NCBI GenBank assembly: GCA_024278345.1 | Contig: JAJRTK010000376.1 | Location: 1 to 13,730 of the forward strand | Length of the DNA: 13,730 nt | DNA from: a bacterium | Lineage (GTDB): Bacteria; CSSED10-310; JAJRTK01 | Direction: 5' to 3' | In this document: in pieces, positions 1,528 through 11,818 of the stretch | How the letters are laid out: each line of letters opens with the position of its first letter | Position numbering within the stretch: the first letter of the stretch is position 1 | The notes under the pieces: generated by a model | The model's database searches: none | The model's input: only the letters and a program-made list of their open reading frames with translations | Told to the model about the DNA's origin: nothing | Translations under genes and position numbers: made by a program

Positions 1528-1615
1528 GCCGGAGTGGTGGAATTGGTAGACGCGCTGGACTCAAAATCCAGTGTCCCTTGCGGACGTGGGGGTTCGAGTC
1601 CCCCCTCCGGCACCA
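1528..1615 (+). tRNA. tRNA-Leu, anticodon CAA, CCA end encoded
   Basis: A complete class II tRNA. The acceptor stem pairs GCCGGAG (1528-1534) with CTCCGGC (1605-1611), followed by discriminator A1612 and an encoded CCA (1613-1615). The D arm contains GGTAGACGCG. The anticodon stem CTGGA/TCCAG encloses the loop CTCAAAA, which places CAA at positions 34-36, so it reads the leucine codon UUG. A long variable arm (TGTCC with GGACG) and a T arm with the GGGGG/CCCCC stem around TTCGAGT complete the fold. The 88 bases including CCA are normal for tRNA-Leu. It is the only plus-strand gene here and is convergent with the flavin reductase gene, whose stop lies 25 bases beyond. I see no obvious terminator between them. 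Confidence 0.97.
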
Positions 1616-4072: not shown

Positions 4073-4355
4073 TCACTCCTCACTGCCGCGGTGCCGCCAC
4101 GCGCTTTGCGTCTGATCGCGCATCACGATCAGGAGACTTGGCCATTGCTCTTCCGCGACAACCGTGAGCGCCTGCAGCACCCGCTGGTGGATCTTCACTC
4201 GATTTGGTTGCCTGAGTCGAACGATCAAGATCCCACAATGCGGCTGAAGGCGCCGCGAAGTAAATCCCTTGTCTGTGGTCACCAGGATTCGCCCTTCTCT
4301 CTGGGCTTTCTCCCACAGAATCGCATCGGATATTCTCATCGACCAATAGCTTCAC
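4073..4355 (-). pseudogene. DUF5615 PIN-like toxin, broken by an internal deletion and frame change
   Basis: The gene begins at GTG 4355, overlapping the antitoxin TGA as GTGA, the usual arrangement for these pairs. The first frame reads VKLLVDENI, the canonical start of DUF5615 proteins, whose DEN acidic residues belong to the PIN-like active site. After that the frame loses similarity. The rest of the family appears in another frame from about 4339: SDAILWEKAQREGRILVTT, then DKGF (acidic PIN position), GILIVRLRQP, and a helical tail to TGA at 4073. The segment normally between DENI and SD (first helix and second strand, roughly 20-25 residues) is missing. An 88-residue protein from ATG 4339 would lack the first catalytic strand. 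I therefore read it as a deletion-inactivated VapC-like RNase toxin; sequencing error is unlikely to remove this many codons. Confidence 0.75.
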
Positions 4356-4588
4356 AGCGCACCTGCAAGTAGCTCCAGCGGCGTGATCTGTTCTTCGGCC
4401 AACGAAGCCGCATAGTCGAGACAAGCGAAGATGTCTTCTGGCTTCAGCGTAGGATACTCCTCCAAAAGCTCCTCGGGCGTATCCCCCGCGGCAAGCATTC
4501 GCACAATCTGATGGACTGGAAGTCTGGTGCCTTTGATGCAGGCCTGTCCATGACAAACCTGAGGATCTATGGAAATTCGTTCATGCAT
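4352..4588 (-). CDS. DUF433 family antitoxin (VapB-like partner of DUF5615)
   Basis: A 78-residue DUF433 protein, the usual antitoxin of DUF5615 toxins: a small winged or helix-turn-helix-type domain that binds DNA and neutralises the toxin. The opening MHERISIDPQVCHGQACIKG followed by TRLPVHQIVRML is the family signature (ID..VC.G.ACIKGTRLPV), and DTPEELLEEYPTLKPEDIFA (36-55) is the conserved second helical part. ATG at 4588 is chosen because GGAGGT lies six bases upstream. The frame also continues upstream to a GTG at 4774, but that 62-residue extension has no family similarity. The TGA overlaps the toxin GTG. The gene is intact while its toxin is not, so it is either an orphan or a surviving autoregulator. 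Confidence 0.88.
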   Translation of the reverse strand: MHERISIDPQVCHGQACIKGTRLPVHQIVRMLAAGDTPEELLEEYPTLKPEDIFACLDYAASLAEEQITPLELLAGAL

Positions 4589-4631
4589 GAATTTACCTCC
4601 AGTAATCTTTTTAACATGGCGATGCCTTGTT

Positions 4632-4782
4632 CTCAGCTCGTGCATATCTTTGCCAGAATCCCGGCTCAACTTCGATTTCATCGGGCTTCCACGAATTGGC
4701 GGAAAGCTCCTCGCCCGGCCGATGGGAAGCCCCATGACATGGGGATCGAACCCCACGGAGTCCAAGTTATGCACGAGCTGAG
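4632..4782. repeat. 15-bp inverted repeat flanking a 121-base unassigned core
   Basis: CTCAGCTCGTGCATA (4632-4646) and its exact reverse complement TATGCACGAGCTGAG (4768-4782) face each other across 121 bases. The core carries further inverted pairs, GGGCTTCC (4683-4690) with GGAAGCCC (4725-4732), and the palindromic GGGGATCGAACCCC (4741-4754). It could be a miniature element or just a folded leader. No transposase or target duplication is visible. Confidence 0.4.
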
Positions 4783-5943: not shown

Positions 5944-8235
5944 TTAGTCACTTTTCCGTTTTGCCTCTTGTACCGTTTCCAATTTTTTCGCGGCTGCCCA
6001 TAATTGGGTGAACCGAGTATAACAGTTGTGGGCCAGAGGCAGATTCCCGAGTTTTTCCGCGATGACTCCCAGGCGGTAGTAGGCCATTGGATAGACGAGC
6101 ACGGCGACCCGATTCACGATGGAAGTGGAGCCGATGGGGATCAGGAAGTTGGCGGCGATGAGGCGGGAATAGGTCTCCCGCGCCTTCTCGAGCTGGCCAT
6201 TGGCGGTGTATGCGCTGGCCAGGGCTTCGAGGTGGACAGGGCGGAAGTGGGCCTTCTCCTGAAACGGAGCTTGGTTGAGGACTGAAATCGCCTCTTCGTT
6301 TTTGCCCTCCGCAAGGAGAATGCGCCCCCGCAGGTGGAGTGCGTACTTGTTTTTTGGCCCGGCCTTGGCCACGATCTTGTCGTATTCCAGTTTCGCCCAA
6401 GCAAGCTCCCCTCGCCTGATATGGAGCCAGCCCCGGTAAGCTCGCCAATAGGGCCGCACCTGGCCTCCATAGACGTCATAGGCCTGTTCCATTTCTCTTA
6501 GCGCTCCATCGAGATCTCCTTCCAAGAAGTCGCTGAAGCTTAGATCCTGGTAGCTTGTGGACAAAATCCGCTTGTCCTGGAACCGTTCGCCCAGCTCTTT
6601 CTTCTGGCGGAAGTAGTTTCGCGCCTCCTGGAAGCGCCCCTGGTGCAGAGCCACGCAGCCCATATTCTGTAGGGCCACGTAGCCCAGGGAAGAGGTTCTG
6701 TCGTAGCTCTTTTCGTAGAGCCTCAGGGCCTCGTCATACGTTTCTTCCAGGACGAAGGTCCCCGCCATGTTGGCGTAGGCATCGCGGAAGCTCGGGTCGA
6801 TTTCGATTGCCTTACCGTAAAGAGCTCGTGCGGCCGCAAGTTGTCCCCGCATTTGGAGAACGTCCCCCAAGAGTCCCTGGGCTCGAGCATGTTTTGGGTG
6901 CTCGCCGGCAAAGCGTTGGGCGAAAGCCAGCGCCCGTTCTTGTTGGCCCGGAACGGAAGCGCAGCGGAGCAGTGAGCCGTAGGCGATGACGAAATCCTGG
7001 TCGAGCTCCAGGACGCGCTCGAAATAGGGGATCGCTTCGCTCTCCCTCTCGAGTCGCCGGTAATTGTCGCCGACCCAGTAGAGGGTTTCCTTTTCATCCG
7101 GGTACTTGCGGTTCAGGGCAAGATAAAGTTCCAGGCTTTTGTCGTACTTCTCACCCACAAAGGCCAGGAAGGCCTCGATACTCTCGCGCTCCCGTTTCGG
7201 CAGGCGGCCAAGGTTCCGTCCAAGGGCCTTTTGGGCCCGTTCGATCACTTCGGGATCGGGGACCCACCAGACTTGGGTCATGGCCAGGCGATAGTGGGCC
7301 AGGGCGAATTCCGGATCGAACTCCATGGCTTTCTCGAAAGCGGTCTGTGCATCTCCAAAATTCGAGCGGTTCAAGAGATCGAGTCCGGCAACGTACTGGC
7401 GGTAGGCTTCCTCGGACGTCGTGGTGGCAGCCTGGAGCCAGTCAGTTTCGGATTCCTTTTTTGAATCCGCCACATTTTTCCCTTCCAGAACGGTTCGGAT
7501 TTCTCCAGAAAGTGAGTGGACGATCTCAAAGAGCCCGGCGAGCTCGCCTTTTCCTTCGCCCGTGGGCGATGCCAGGAGGGCTCCGCTCTGTACGTCCACG
7601 ATCCTGGATTGGACAGCGACGCGAGCGCCCTTTCTTGAGACGCTTCCCAGGACGATCTTCGGGACACCCGCCTCTTGAGCCACCTGGCGGGCGGTCTCCT
7701 CGTCCACCACCTGCTCGCTCCCCCGACTTCGGAGAATGTCGGAGAGTTTCTGGATTGAAAAGACCGGGAGCTCACCCTCTTGCGAGAGACTTGTGATGAG
7801 CAGATTCGTCACCATCTGCCCCAACCGGTCTTGGTCTTCGGGGGAGGCAAGGTTCTGGAAATAAAAGACCGCGAGACCGGGCTCGACTTCTTTCCGTCCG
7901 AAGAGCCGCCATCCCAGGGCCAGGCTCCCAAGTACGAGCAGGATCGCCAGTGCCACGGCGACTTTCAGGGAAACGCCCTTGGCGTCGGCGGGCTTGTAGA
8001 GCTCCTGGTAAAGAGCTTTGAGCTCAGCGGCCATCTCGTCGATACTGGCGTAGCGGTTCTCTTTCTCCTTCTCCAGCCCTTTCTGGAGGATTTCGCCAAG
8101 CTTTTCCGGCAAATGGGGGGCCAGATCCGAAAGGGGCCGGGGCTCTTCCTGAAGGATTTGGCGCAGGAGGAGAGCCTGTTTGTCGGCGGCGAAGGGTAGC
8201 TGTCCGGTGAGGAGCTCGAAGAAAAGGATCGACAC
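5944..8235 (-). CDS. C-terminal part of the kinase: late C-lobe, membrane helix, FlgO/TolB-like domain, TPRs
   Basis: This is what could still be made if translation restarted at GTG 8235 after the premature stop (763 residues). Residues 1-80 are the end of the kinase C-lobe (ILFFELLTGQLPF; Arg61 in EKENRYAS is the conserved subdomain XI arginine). A membrane helix follows at 88-110. Residues about 119-250 (LAVFYFQNLA, then VPKIVLGSVSRKGARVAVQS) match the FlgO/TolB N-terminal-like domain often placed between kinase and TPRs in such proteins. From about 275 to 750 lie roughly ten TPR-like helix pairs, for example FGDAQTAFEKAMEFDPEFAL and LAAARALYGKAIEIDPSFRD. TPRs bind protein partners; here they would be extracytoplasmic. 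No good ribosome-binding site precedes GTG 8235, so independent expression is doubtful. Confidence 0.7.
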   Translation of the reverse strand: MSILFFELLTGQLPFAADKQALLLRQILQEEPRPLSDLAPHLPEKLGEILQKGLEKEKENRYASIDEMAAELKALYQELYKPADAKGVSLKVAVALAILLVLGSLALGWRLFGRKEVEPGLAVFYFQNLASPEDQDRLGQMVTNLLITSLSQEGELPVFSIQKLSDILRSRGSEQVVDEETARQVAQEAGVPKIVLGSVSRKGARVAVQSRIVDVQSGALLASPTGEGKGELAGLFEIVHSLSGEIRTVLEGKNVADSKKESETDWLQAATTTSEEAYRQYVAGLDLLNRSNFGDAQTAFEKAMEFDPEFALAHYRLAMTQVWWVPDPEVIERAQKALGRNLGRLPKRERESIEAFLAFVGEKYDKSLELYLALNRKYPDEKETLYWVGDNYRRLERESEAIPYFERVLELDQDFVIAYGSLLRCASVPGQQERALAFAQRFAGEHPKHARAQGLLGDVLQMRGQLAAARALYGKAIEIDPSFRDAYANMAGTFVLEETYDEALRLYEKSYDRTSSLGYVALQNMGCVALHQGRFQEARNYFRQKKELGERFQDKRILSTSYQDLSFSDFLEGDLDGALREMEQAYDVYGGQVRPYWRAYRGWLHIRRGELAWAKLEYDKIVAKAGPKNKYALHLRGRILLAEGKNEEAISVLNQAPFQEKAHFRPVHLEALASAYTANGQLEKARETYSRLIAANFLIPIGSTSIVNRVAVLVYPMAYYRLGVIAEKLGNLPLAHNCYTRFTQLWAAAKKLETVQEAKRKSD

Positions 8236-8286
8236 CGAGAAAACGTCACTCCGGCTATCGATCTCACCATCGAGGATCTGCTCCGG

Positions 8287-8289
8287 TTA
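8287..8289 (-). other. Premature in-frame TAA stop inside the kinase activation segment
   Basis: The plus bases TTA at 8287-8289 read TAA on the minus strand, codon 188 of the kinase. Codons on both sides give GTVEYM and PEQILDGEIDSRSDVF, both canonical. The sequence around it has no homopolymer that would favour an indel; the defect is a substitution, most simply C to A in TCA. Confidence 0.9.
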
Positions 8290-8850
8290 CATGTACTCCA
8301 CCGTGCCCAGCGTGATTCCGGAACCGGTGATTTCATCGCCGTGGAAACCTCCCTCTTCGCCGAAGGTCTTGGCGATCCCGAAGTCCATGACCTTCACTTC
8401 GCCTCGGGGCGTTTCCATGACGTTGGCCAGCTTGAGGTCCCGATGCACGATCTTGTGGCGGTGGGCCTCGGCCAGAGCCTCGGAGATGGCGCGGGCCACC
8501 TGAAAAAAGCGTTTGAGTTCCAGAGGCCCTTCTTCCACCAGAGCCTGCTTGAGAGTCCAGCCTTCCACACATTCCATGGAGATGAAGCCGAGGCCATCGG
8601 CTTCGTTGATCTCGTAGATCGTCGCGATCCCCGGATGGTTGAGGCGTGCGGCCAGGCGTGCCTCCCGGATGAAGCGTGCCCGGGTATCGTCATCGATTTC
8701 GGTGCCAAGGTCGAGGAGCTTGAGGGCGACGGTCCGACCGAGCTTGAGATCCGCGGCCTTGTAGACCGCAGCCATGCCTCCCTGCCCAAGCTTGTCGATG
8801 ATCCGATAGTGGGCGATGCGCTGTCCTGGCCGCAGCTCGACGATGTTCAT
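8287..8850 (-). CDS. N-terminal part of the Ser/Thr kinase, truncated before the APE motif
   Basis: A 187-residue cytoplasmic fragment containing the kinase N-lobe and the first half of the C-lobe. Visible residues are the glycine loop GQGGMAAVYK (22-31), the ATP lysine Lys44 in VALKLL, the alphaC Glu63, the catalytic loop HRDLKLANVM (136-145, Asp138 and Asn143), and DFG (156-158). It ends at GTVEYM, one residue before the position that should be Ser or Ala of the APE-type motif. The fragment lacks the substrate-binding helices (subdomains IX-XI), so it should not fold as a normal active kinase. All catalytic residues up to the stop are intact, with no other sign of decay, which points to a very recent event or a base-call error. 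Confidence 0.85.
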   Translation of the reverse strand: MNIVELRPGQRIAHYRIIDKLGQGGMAAVYKAADLKLGRTVALKLLDLGTEIDDDTRARFIREARLAARLNHPGIATIYEINEADGLGFISMECVEGWTLKQALVEEGPLELKRFFQVARAISEALAEAHRHKIVHRDLKLANVMETPRGEVKVMDFGIAKTFGEEGGFHGDEITGSGITLGTVEYM

Positions 8851-8884
8851 TCAGCGGGTTCCTTAGCCAACGTTTCGCGGATTC

Positions 8885-11818
8885 CTAGCCCAAGAGTTCT
8901 TCGAGCTTGGCCAAGAGCTCCTTGAAGCGGTACGGCTTGGCCAAAAAGGTCACCGCTCCTCCGCTGGCCAATTCATCGGCCAGCTCCTGGCGATTATAAC
9001 CACTGGAGAGGATGACGCGAACATTCTTGTCCAAGTTGCGCATCTTTTCCAGCGCGGTGAGTCCGTCCATGTGTGGCATGGTCAAGTCGAGGAGGACACA
9101 GGCAATCTCGTGTCGCCGCCTTTGGTAGATCTCCACCGCTTCACATCCATCGACAGCCAGCAAGACTTCGAATCCCGCAAGCTCCAACATATATTTGGCG
9201 ACGCCTCGGATCGTCTCTTCGTCATCCACCACCAGGATCTTCCCACGCCGCAAGATGGCGCTTTTGAGAAACGCCCTGGATTTTTCCACGACTTTGGCCG
9301 ATTCGGCGGCGGGGAAGAGAATGCGAAAGGTCGTTCCCACTTCCGGTTGGCTCTCGATTCGGATTGCACCGCGATGGCTCCGCACGATTCCCAGCAAAGC
9401 CGCCAGCCCAAGGCCCCGGCCCGCGAACTTCGTTGTGAAGAAAGGGTCGAAGATCTGCTTCCGGCTCTTTTGGGGAATCCCGCATCCCGTGTCGGCTACC
9501 TCTACATAGACGTAGATACCTTCCCGTTGTCCCTCGTCCAAGTAGCAGCTCTTCAAGTAATCCCGCTTGCAGTCCAAGGCGCCGGTTCGGATGGCGATGA
9601 GTCCACTCCGGTCGGCAATCGCTTCTGAAGCGTTGGTGACCAGGTTCACGAGCACCTGTCGTATCTGCGATTTGTCCCCTTCGAAAGCCGGCAGATCAGG
9701 CTCAAAATCAAGCTTGAGCAGGGCGCTTTTCGAAATCGAGAGCTTCAGAAAATGGAGCATTTCCTGAATGAAAGCACTCAAGTTGATGGGCTCTACCACG
9801 AACTTGCCCTTGCCGGAATAGGCGAGCATCTGCCGCACGAGCTGGGCAGCTCTCCGGGATGACGACTCGATCTCCCGCAAATATCCCTGAGCTTTGGAGT
9901 CGTCCGGAAGATGGAGCATCGCCAAATCCGTGTTGCCCAGGATCGCCATAAGGATGTTGTTGAAGTCGTGGGCGATACCGCTGGCGAGCACACCCAGGCT
10001 TTCGAGCTTCTGGACCTGCCGCAAGTGGGTCTCGAAACAACGCTGTTCTTCTTCCGCCTGCATCCGCTGGGTCACGTCCACAAGGTAGCCAAGGTAGTGC
10101 TGAACCCGACCCTGTTGATCCCTGAGGATCGTCGTGTAGTCCGCAACCCACACGAACTCCCCATTTTTCTTTCTCAAACGGTAAGGCTTGTGTTCGAAGC
10201 GGCTGACACCGCTGGCCGTGTACTTCTTCACTTCGTTGGTCACTTCCGCCAGATCGGCTTCCACCACGAGATCCGCATAGGGAATCTCGCCGCTCAGGAA
10301 CTCTGGGGCCGTGTAGCCCAGCAACTCCGTGACATTGGGCGAAACGTAATCCACCGGCCAACCCTCCACCGCTCTCCACTTGAAGGTCACCACGGGACCG
10401 GTGAAGAACAGATTGCGCTCCTGCTCCAAAAGCGCGTTGAGCTTTTTGAGCCTCGATTCCGCCTCCTTCCGCTCGGTGACATCCTTGCAATGGGTCAAGA
10501 AATTGCCACCAGGTAGCTTGACGGCGTCGAAAGCAATCCAAAGCTCGGAGCCATCTTTCCGGCACAAAGAACCCTCCCCCCGTAACGACCCCGTTTCCTT
10601 GAGCCTCTGGAAACGCTGGCACGCCGTCTGGCGGAACCATTCCGGAACGAGATCGAGAAAGGACGAACCCGCAAGCTCTTCTTTGGAATAACCCGTGATG
10701 CGGCTTGCCGCAATGTTCACTTCCAAGCAAACGCCTCGCGGATCCAGAATGACGATGCCATCGGGTGCCAACTCGACGTAGGCCCGGTACCGCTCTTCGC
10801 TCCTAGCCAAGCTTTCTTCAGTCCGTTTGCGGTGCAAGGCATCCCCGAAAAGAACCCCCATCATCCGAAGCAGGGGCCAGGCCTCCCGGGGAGCGGGGGC
10901 TTCCGCACGGACAAAATCGAATCCCACAAATCCCGTGAGATCTTGCTCCCGCACCATGGGTACGGTCACCAAGGAAAGAATACCCTGCTCCACGAAATGA
11001 GCCTTCTCCCGGCTCGCTTCTTCCGGGAGTTCCGCGACGGACGGAATCACCAGGTCTTCCATATTCCGGATTCGGCGAGCAAGCCAGGGGAGCTTCTCGT
11101 CCATAAGGATGCCCTGAAGCCGCGATATCCGCGGCTCAATCCCCTCCCGGCACCATTCGTGAGTGTTCGTCGCTAGAACGCCAGCCTTGTCAAACTGGAA
11201 AACGTAGGCGCGATCGACCCCCACGTACTCGCCCAACAAGGCCAGCGCCCGGTCGATCCCGCCGTCGATCTCATGGGAACCAAGGCGCATGAACTCCATG
11301 GCCAAAGCCGAGATGATCCGATCAAGACCCAGCCGATAGTCCCCATCCCCGGACCGATTCTCCTCTCCGATCCGGCGAACGATGCTATAAAAAGCCATTC
11401 TGCCGCCGTAATCGATCACCCGGGAATCGACACTCACCGGGAGCTCCATCCCATCCTTCTTCTGAATCTGCTCGAACCGAACGTGCCCCTTGGAAAGCAG
11501 TTTTTGGATGATCTCGCGATTCCGCGCCGCCGACATCCCCGAATAGAGATCATGAACGCGAAGCTGCAAAAGCTCTTGCCGCTTGTAGCCCAGAAATCTC
11601 ACCGCCGCATGATTGGCGTTCAAGATCTCCCGCCTGTCTGGACCTACGATGAACACAGCTTCGTCCATCGCCTCAATCAGCCGACTCCAACGAAGGCGCA
11701 CCTCCTCCATCCCCGACCCGGTTCCCTCCATGCTTGCCCTTCCCCCTTGGGCAAGCTGCCCACGAAGAAACTCGATCTCGGCCAAAAGCTGATCCCGTGT
11801 TCGACACTCCCCATCCAT
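8885..11818 (-). CDS. Soluble PAS-GAF-PAS-PAS hybrid histidine kinase with C-terminal receiver
   Basis: A 977-residue hybrid sensor kinase with no membrane helix, so a cytoplasmic sensor. Order: short coil (8-25); PAS (45-150); GAF-like (168-330, with VDRAYVFQFD and an EHGI-like EQGI stretch); PAS (338-452, APDGIVILDP); PAS with PAC (470-588); HisKA with phosphoaccepting His617 in GIAHDFNNIL; HATPase with N box Asn725/Asn729, G1 DTGCGIP (776-782) and G2 GRGLGL (800-805); receiver (859-976) with Asp865/Asp866, phosphoacceptor Asp911 in LLDLTMP, Ser938/939 and Lys961. The short F-box and GIAHDFNNIL put it in the HisKA family often lacking a cognate output regulator. ATG 11818 has AGGA eight bases upstream. 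The Ser/Thr kinase starts 34 bases downstream, suggesting one operon. The ligand of PAS or GAF cannot be read. Confidence 0.95.
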   Translation of the reverse strand: MDGECRTRDQLLAEIEFLRGQLAQGGRASMEGTGSGMEEVRLRWSRLIEAMDEAVFIVGPDRREILNANHAAVRFLGYKRQELLQLRVHDLYSGMSAARNREIIQKLLSKGHVRFEQIQKKDGMELPVSVDSRVIDYGGRMAFYSIVRRIGEENRSGDGDYRLGLDRIISALAMEFMRLGSHEIDGGIDRALALLGEYVGVDRAYVFQFDKAGVLATNTHEWCREGIEPRISRLQGILMDEKLPWLARRIRNMEDLVIPSVAELPEEASREKAHFVEQGILSLVTVPMVREQDLTGFVGFDFVRAEAPAPREAWPLLRMMGVLFGDALHRKRTEESLARSEERYRAYVELAPDGIVILDPRGVCLEVNIAASRITGYSKEELAGSSFLDLVPEWFRQTACQRFQRLKETGSLRGEGSLCRKDGSELWIAFDAVKLPGGNFLTHCKDVTERKEAESRLKKLNALLEQERNLFFTGPVVTFKWRAVEGWPVDYVSPNVTELLGYTAPEFLSGEIPYADLVVEADLAEVTNEVKKYTASGVSRFEHKPYRLRKKNGEFVWVADYTTILRDQQGRVQHYLGYLVDVTQRMQAEEEQRCFETHLRQVQKLESLGVLASGIAHDFNNILMAILGNTDLAMLHLPDDSKAQGYLREIESSSRRAAQLVRQMLAYSGKGKFVVEPINLSAFIQEMLHFLKLSISKSALLKLDFEPDLPAFEGDKSQIRQVLVNLVTNASEAIADRSGLIAIRTGALDCKRDYLKSCYLDEGQREGIYVYVEVADTGCGIPQKSRKQIFDPFFTTKFAGRGLGLAALLGIVRSHRGAIRIESQPEVGTTFRILFPAAESAKVVEKSRAFLKSAILRRGKILVVDDEETIRGVAKYMLELAGFEVLLAVDGCEAVEIYQRRRHEIACVLLDLTMPHMDGLTALEKMRNLDKNVRVILSSGYNRQELADELASGGAVTFLAKPYRFKELLAKLEELLG

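What the first reader, a model, noticed from the sequence alone, without database searches (positions are those of the whole stretch)
8287..8289. Single stop codon at the APE motif splits an otherwise perfect Ser/Thr kinase
The sequence shows GTVEYM-TAA-PEQ in one continuous frame, with all catalytic residues intact before it and a full membrane, FlgO/TolB-like and TPR region after it. The affected residue is a Ser or Ala in relatives, and TCA to TAA is one substitution. Loss of the kinase C-lobe would uncouple the sensor or TPR part from kinase activity. It is either a strain-level nonsense mutation that switches off a signalling branch, or a base error. Translational readthrough at this exact site would be novel but is the least likely.
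Basis: partly seen in the sequence, partly recalled or inferred. Interest (0 to 1): 0.6.

Follow-up and report, generated by a model that had tools for sequence, protein, structure and literature searches.

The report
Stray stop codon in bacterial kinase
One stop codon cuts an otherwise intact bacterial signalling-kinase gene in two, but the same draft genome carries similar lone stops in several other kinases and in unrelated genes, so this is most likely a sequence error or an ordinary nonsense mutation rather than a new kind of switch.

Summary
On the minus strand, codon 188 of a 968-codon frame (8850-5944) is TAA at 8287-8289, reading GTVEYM*PEQ, inside a complete PknB-like kinase domain followed by a membrane helix and FlgO-like and TPR regions. 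It is not unique. The window is one contig of a 550-contig draft genome (87.9% complete) with roughly 100 kinase domains. Four have an in-frame stop, all within seven codons of the activation segment (xYMSPEQ): YM*PEQ (TAA, this one), YM*PEQ (TAG), SPE*VQ (TAG), P*CLAPEQ (TAA). Lone TAA/TAG stops also interrupt two HATPase_c domains, an OppD-type ATPase, a benzoyl-CoA reductase subunit, and DUF3352, RHS and propeller proteins. A sister genome has none in 74 kinase matches. RF1 and RF2 are intact, TAG ends 29% of genes, and no CTA/TTA-anticodon tRNA was found, so alternative code or suppression is not supported. Best reading: one of many single-base nonsense lesions in this assembly, more likely consensus error than real mutation; both stay open without reads. 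The activation-segment clustering (simulated chance about 0.003) is unexplained. Programmed readthrough is not excluded but has no positive evidence.

The parts
8287..8289 (-). In-frame TAA, codon 188, at the Ser/Ala position before PEQ of the kinase APE motif
   Evidence: residue identity
8287..8850 (-). 5' open frame: 187 codons with the N-lobe, catalytic loop, DFG and the start of the activation segment
   Evidence: PF00069 profile positions 1-153
8047..8808 (-). Complete protein kinase domain when the stop is read as X
   Evidence: (PF00069 1-253, 1 TAA inside)
7915..7983 (-). Probable single membrane helix, about residues 290-312
   Evidence: by eye from the translation; not predicted with a tool
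7564..7878 (-). FlgO-like domain, residues 325-429
   Evidence: PF17680 E 3.2e-7
6148..7392 (-). TPR repeat region, about residues 487-901
5944..5946 (-). Regular TAA stop at the end of the 968-codon frame
8885..11818 (-). Intact hybrid histidine kinase gene (PAS, GAF, HisKA, HATPase_c, Response_reg) immediately upstream on the same strand, probably co-transcribed
   Evidence: co-transcription is inference

Best explanation
The TAA is a single-base nonsense lesion in an otherwise intact PknB-like, membrane-anchored kinase gene, and one of many lone in-frame TAA/TAG codons scattered through this draft genome. Most likely it is a consensus error of a fragmentary metagenome-type assembly, so that the real gene would encode the full 968-residue kinase. 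If the base is real, termination would leave a 187-residue half kinase without the APE motif and C-lobe (inactive, by inference) and an untranslated sensor/TPR part, as no reinitiation signal is evident. Shown: the stop, the intact frame, the other stops, the standard termination machinery. Inferred: that the base is wrong.
For: Lone stops occur across unrelated families of the same genome: kinases 4 of roughly 100 domains, ABC 1 of 65 matches, HATPase_c 2 of 55, plus benzoyl-CoA reductase B, DUF3352, RHS and propeller proteins. Among the nine genes read, each has one stop in the stretch examined, and the rest of that frame is open. A sister draft genome has 0 in 74 kinase matches. The TAG:TAA:TGA counts 7:4:0 do not clearly depart from those expected for random single substitutions (chance of no TGA 0.03-0.07). 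RF1 and RF2 are intact and TAG/TAA are ordinary terminators. The genome is fragmented and incomplete. A published survey shows that inflated internal-stop counts mark poor assemblies and that low-quality reads add stops more than frameshifts (PMC11017572).
Against: All four kinase stops fall in one seven-codon stretch; the simulated chance is 0.003 for any such window, 0.0002 given the first site. The implied substitution error rate, about one per kilobase, is high. No reads or coverage were available. Frameshift or deletion lesions also exist in the genome, which real gene decay would give too.
Confidence: 0.58

Rival explanations
1. Real, recent nonsense mutation: loss of function in this kinase, in a genome or strain with many fresh pseudogenes. 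The truncated product is an inactive half kinase.
For: The sequence as assembled has the stop. The family is very redundant, with roughly 100 kinase domains, so loss would be tolerated. Other lesions occur: a deletion with frameshift in a DUF5615 gene of this window, a degraded kinase on C463, a split ABC gene on C49.
Against: Each stop-bearing gene that was read otherwise looks intact over its open frame; older pseudogenes should carry several lesions. The phenomenon spans catabolic and transport genes as well. No sister genome could be compared.
Confidence: 0.33
2. Functional stop: some kinases of this lineage carry a selected stop in the activation segment, giving a truncated product or full-length kinase only by readthrough.
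For: Four kinases have stops in the same seven codons, while the motif is nearly intact in the others. Bacterial readthrough can be substantial under stress (PMC11126739).
Against: Stop codons, residues replaced and 3' contexts differ (TAA C, TAG C, TAG G, TAA T). The stop motif YM*PEQ is absent as a kinase from 385 other genomes. Similar stops interrupt unrelated enzymes. No suppressor tRNA was found.
Confidence: 0.03
3. Alternative genetic code or genome-wide TAA/TAG suppression.
For: All 11 internal stops found are TAA or TAG, none TGA.
Against: RF1 and RF2 are intact. TAG and TAA end 44% of long genes. The residues replaced differ: Ser/Ala and Gln from paralogs, probably Tyr at an RHS YD repeat (motif knowledge). 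No CTA/TTA-anticodon tRNA found, although the genome is only 88% complete.
Confidence: 0.02

Closest known systems
Spurious pseudogenes from assembly errors (Cooley and Wright 2024, PMC11017572)
   Same: Isolated internal stops in otherwise intact genes, in excess over a related genome, in a fragmented draft assembly
   Different: Read coverage could not be checked here; the clustering in the kinase activation segment is not predicted by that explanation
PknB-type Ser/Thr kinases (solved PknB structures, for example 6b2p)
   Same: Whole kinase domain aligns across the stop; residue 188 is the Ser of SPEQ
   Different: Stop codon at that residue; C-terminal FlgO-like and TPR region instead of PASTA repeats (PASTA from general knowledge)
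Kinase-TPR relatives in G016, G001 and Candidatus Aminicenantes genomes
   Same: Similar along much or most of the length, 27-34% identical
   Different: The G016 and G001 frames have Ser at the position and no internal stop

Membership tests
Hanks-type Ser/Thr protein kinase (PF00069) | Full kinase domain with invariant Lys, HRD, Asn, DFG, APE and C-lobe in one frame | tested here: inconclusive
   All present if the stop is read as X; split by TAA at codon 188 as assembled
Spurious pseudogene from assembly error | Excess of isolated internal stops relative to related genomes | tested here: met
   Eleven found in G000; none in 74 kinase matches of G001. G001 is only a same-phylum relative
Spurious pseudogene from assembly error | Reads contradict or barely support the stop | not testable with these tools
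   No reads or coverage held
Programmed stop-codon readthrough | Same stop conserved at the site in diverged relatives | tested here: not met
   Long relatives have Ser; YM*PEQ pattern not found in a kinase of 385 other genomes
Programmed stop-codon readthrough | Full-length product or spanning peptide | not testable with these tools
   Needs protein data
Alternative genetic code or suppression | TAA/TAG not used, or rarely used, as terminators; RF1 lost or altered | tested here: not met
   TGA 351, TAG 183, TAA 91 at ends of long frames; RF1 and RF2 intact
Alternative genetic code or suppression | tRNA with CTA or TTA anticodon | tested here: inconclusive
   None among the tRNA genes found, but the genome is 87.9% complete

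The most novel reading that the evidence does not exclude
In this lineage, with roughly 100 kinase domains, a subset of kinases carries a selected stop codon in the activation segment, so that only a truncated half kinase is made unless the stop is read through: a translational on/off switch placed at the APE motif.
Probability: 0.03. Interest if true: 0.8.

Novelty: already known. Interest (0 to 1): 0.2.

Why it matters
If the stops are assembly errors, this is a caution: the draft genome contains many falsely broken genes, and its kinases should be counted as intact. If they are real, the lineage is losing kinases. If the cluster at the activation segment proved functional, it would be a new way to gate kinases, but nothing here shows that.

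Tried and rejected
Alternative code: rejected by intact RF1/RF2 and normal TAG/TAA use. Suppressor tRNA: none found; an odd tRNA-like gene on C257 has a six-base anticodon loop and shows no CTA or TTA anticodon. Conserved stop in relatives: none; the two pattern hits outside the phylum are not in kinases. Error hotspot at repeated DNA words: of nine sites tested only the window site and C179 lie in words repeated more often than the random 99th percentile. Chimeric joining of two kinases at the motif: not supported, since relatives match across the stop. A stop on C378 (L131:776) that I first read as the catalytic Tyr of an integrase was dropped, because Pfam shows an AbiEii gene starting about 20 residues later. 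A first coding-potential scan was too weak and was replaced by a dicodon model, which still misses some known cases. Self-tblastn gave many antisense-frame matches that I ignored. Structure prediction was not run: the domain is certain by sequence.

Full report
What is there. The minus strand of the window carries a frame from ATG 8850 to TAA 5944 with one internal TAA at 8287-8289, codon 188. With the stop written as X, residues 15-268 are a complete PknB-type kinase domain (PF00069 150 bits; solved PknB structures E 3e-49). A membrane helix (by eye, about residues 290-312), a FlgO-like domain and TPR repeats follow. An intact hybrid histidine kinase ends about 34 bases upstream on the same strand, so the two are probably co-transcribed (inference).

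The site. The replaced residue is the Ser/Ala before PEQ. Two long relatives have Ser there, PknB has Ser, and 79 of 90 kinases of this genome have Ala or Ser. A relative in G016 matches residues 9-954 at 33% identity without a break at the stop, so the downstream part belongs to the same gene.

The genome. The window is the whole of contig 306 of a 6.06 Mb draft in 550 contigs, 87.9% complete. Only eight genomes of its phylum are in the set searched, and none of the others is closer than phylum. One search lists 129 PF00069 matches, some of them two pieces of one protein; I count roughly 100 domains. Four contain a stop: this one; C179 GSPSYM*PEQ (TAG); C57 GTPQYMSPE*VQ (TAG); C414 SHP*CLAPEQ (TAA). 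All four lie within the seven codons xYMSPEQ.

Is that cluster chance? Weighting each codon by its single-base routes to a stop, the seven codons hold 5.9% of all opportunities in 93 kinases. The chance that the other three fall there given the first is 0.0002, and that some seven-column window takes all four is 0.003 (the script stopped with an error after printing these values). It is suggestive, not conclusive. A hotspot of random errors would also make many missense changes, yet the motif is nearly intact in the other kinases. I have no explanation beyond chance for this clustering.

The stops are not confined to kinases. PF00005 has 1 stop in 65 matches, at the Q-loop Gln of an OppD-type ATPase. 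PF02518 has 2 in 55, PF00158 0 in 31 and PF00072 0 in 81. In 1.6 Mb of fetched sequence a coding-potential scan found further lone stops, supported by Pfam or NCBIfam matches, in a benzoyl-CoA reductase subunit B (TAA), a DUF3352 protein, an RHS protein and a propeller protein (all TAG). The scan is not very sensitive. The domain searches imply about 1e-4 stops per codon, which would mean of the order of 200 in the genome (rough inference). The sister draft genome G001 shows none in 74 kinase matches. In the listed matches of the other relatives, the three stops reported lie beyond the kinase domain.

Code and termination. RF1 (PAT motif) and RF2 (SPF motif) are both intact. TAG and TAA end 44% of long frames. 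ARAGORN on the tRNA loci gives no CTA or TTA anticodon. The 11 internal stops are 7 TAG, 4 TAA and 0 TGA; random substitution predicts 21-27% TGA, so the absence of TGA has a chance of 0.03-0.07. That is a weak hint, not enough to argue for suppression, and the residues replaced are not of one kind.

Interpretation. A published survey found that many internal-stop pseudogenes in bacterial assemblies are assembly errors, that low coverage raises their number, and that low-quality reads add stops more than frameshifts (PMC11017572). The pattern here fits: scattered single lesions, frames otherwise open, a fragmented draft, an excess over a sister genome. Real recent nonsense is the main rival. 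Other kinds of lesion do occur in the genome, including a deletion with frameshift in a DUF5615 gene in this very window. Without reads I put error at 0.58 and real nonsense at 0.33. Readthrough can be substantial in E. coli under stress (PMC11126739), but nothing specific to this site supports it.

How it would work if real. Termination at codon 188 would give a 187-residue fragment holding the ATP site and catalytic loop but lacking the APE motif and the C-lobe helices. From general kinase knowledge this should be inactive. The stop is preceded by ATG (ATG TAA), but the four kinases share no downstream start arrangement that suggests reinitiation, so the sensor/TPR part would probably not be made.

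Noticed in passing
window 4076-4339 (-) with 4355-4774 (-): DUF433-DUF5615 pair of toxin-antitoxin type. The DUF5615 frame matches its profile only from position 34; its start (VKLLVDEN) lies in another frame just upstream, so the gene has lost about two dozen codons with a frameshift: a second lesion in this window.
   Followed up: partly
L067:798 (C179), L147:17752 (C57), L066:3713 (C414): Three further kinases of the same genome with a stop in the activation segment, within the same seven codons as the window's.
   Followed up: yes
L166:5411 (C262): OppD-type ABC ATPase with TAG at the invariant Q-loop Gln (AMVF*EPMTSLNP).
   Followed up: partly
L232:5673 (C51): Benzoyl-CoA reductase subunit B relative (686 bits over the full model) with an internal TAA; suggests anaerobic aromatic degradation in this organism.
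   Followed up: partly
L137:2872-2944 (C257): tRNA-like gene near a tRNA-Met with a six-base anticodon loop and an imperfect acceptor stem; possibly a decayed tRNA.
   Followed up: partly
L207 around 1300-1750 (C463): A kinase whose pieces lie in different frames, apparently with frameshifts or deletions around the catalytic region.
   Followed up: no
Many kinase loci of G000, for example window 8341-8925 (+): The antisense frame of kinase genes often stays open and even gives matches to the kinase profile, a trap for six-frame searches.
   Followed up: no
window 1528-1615 (+): tRNA-Leu gene, anticodon CAA.
   Followed up: no
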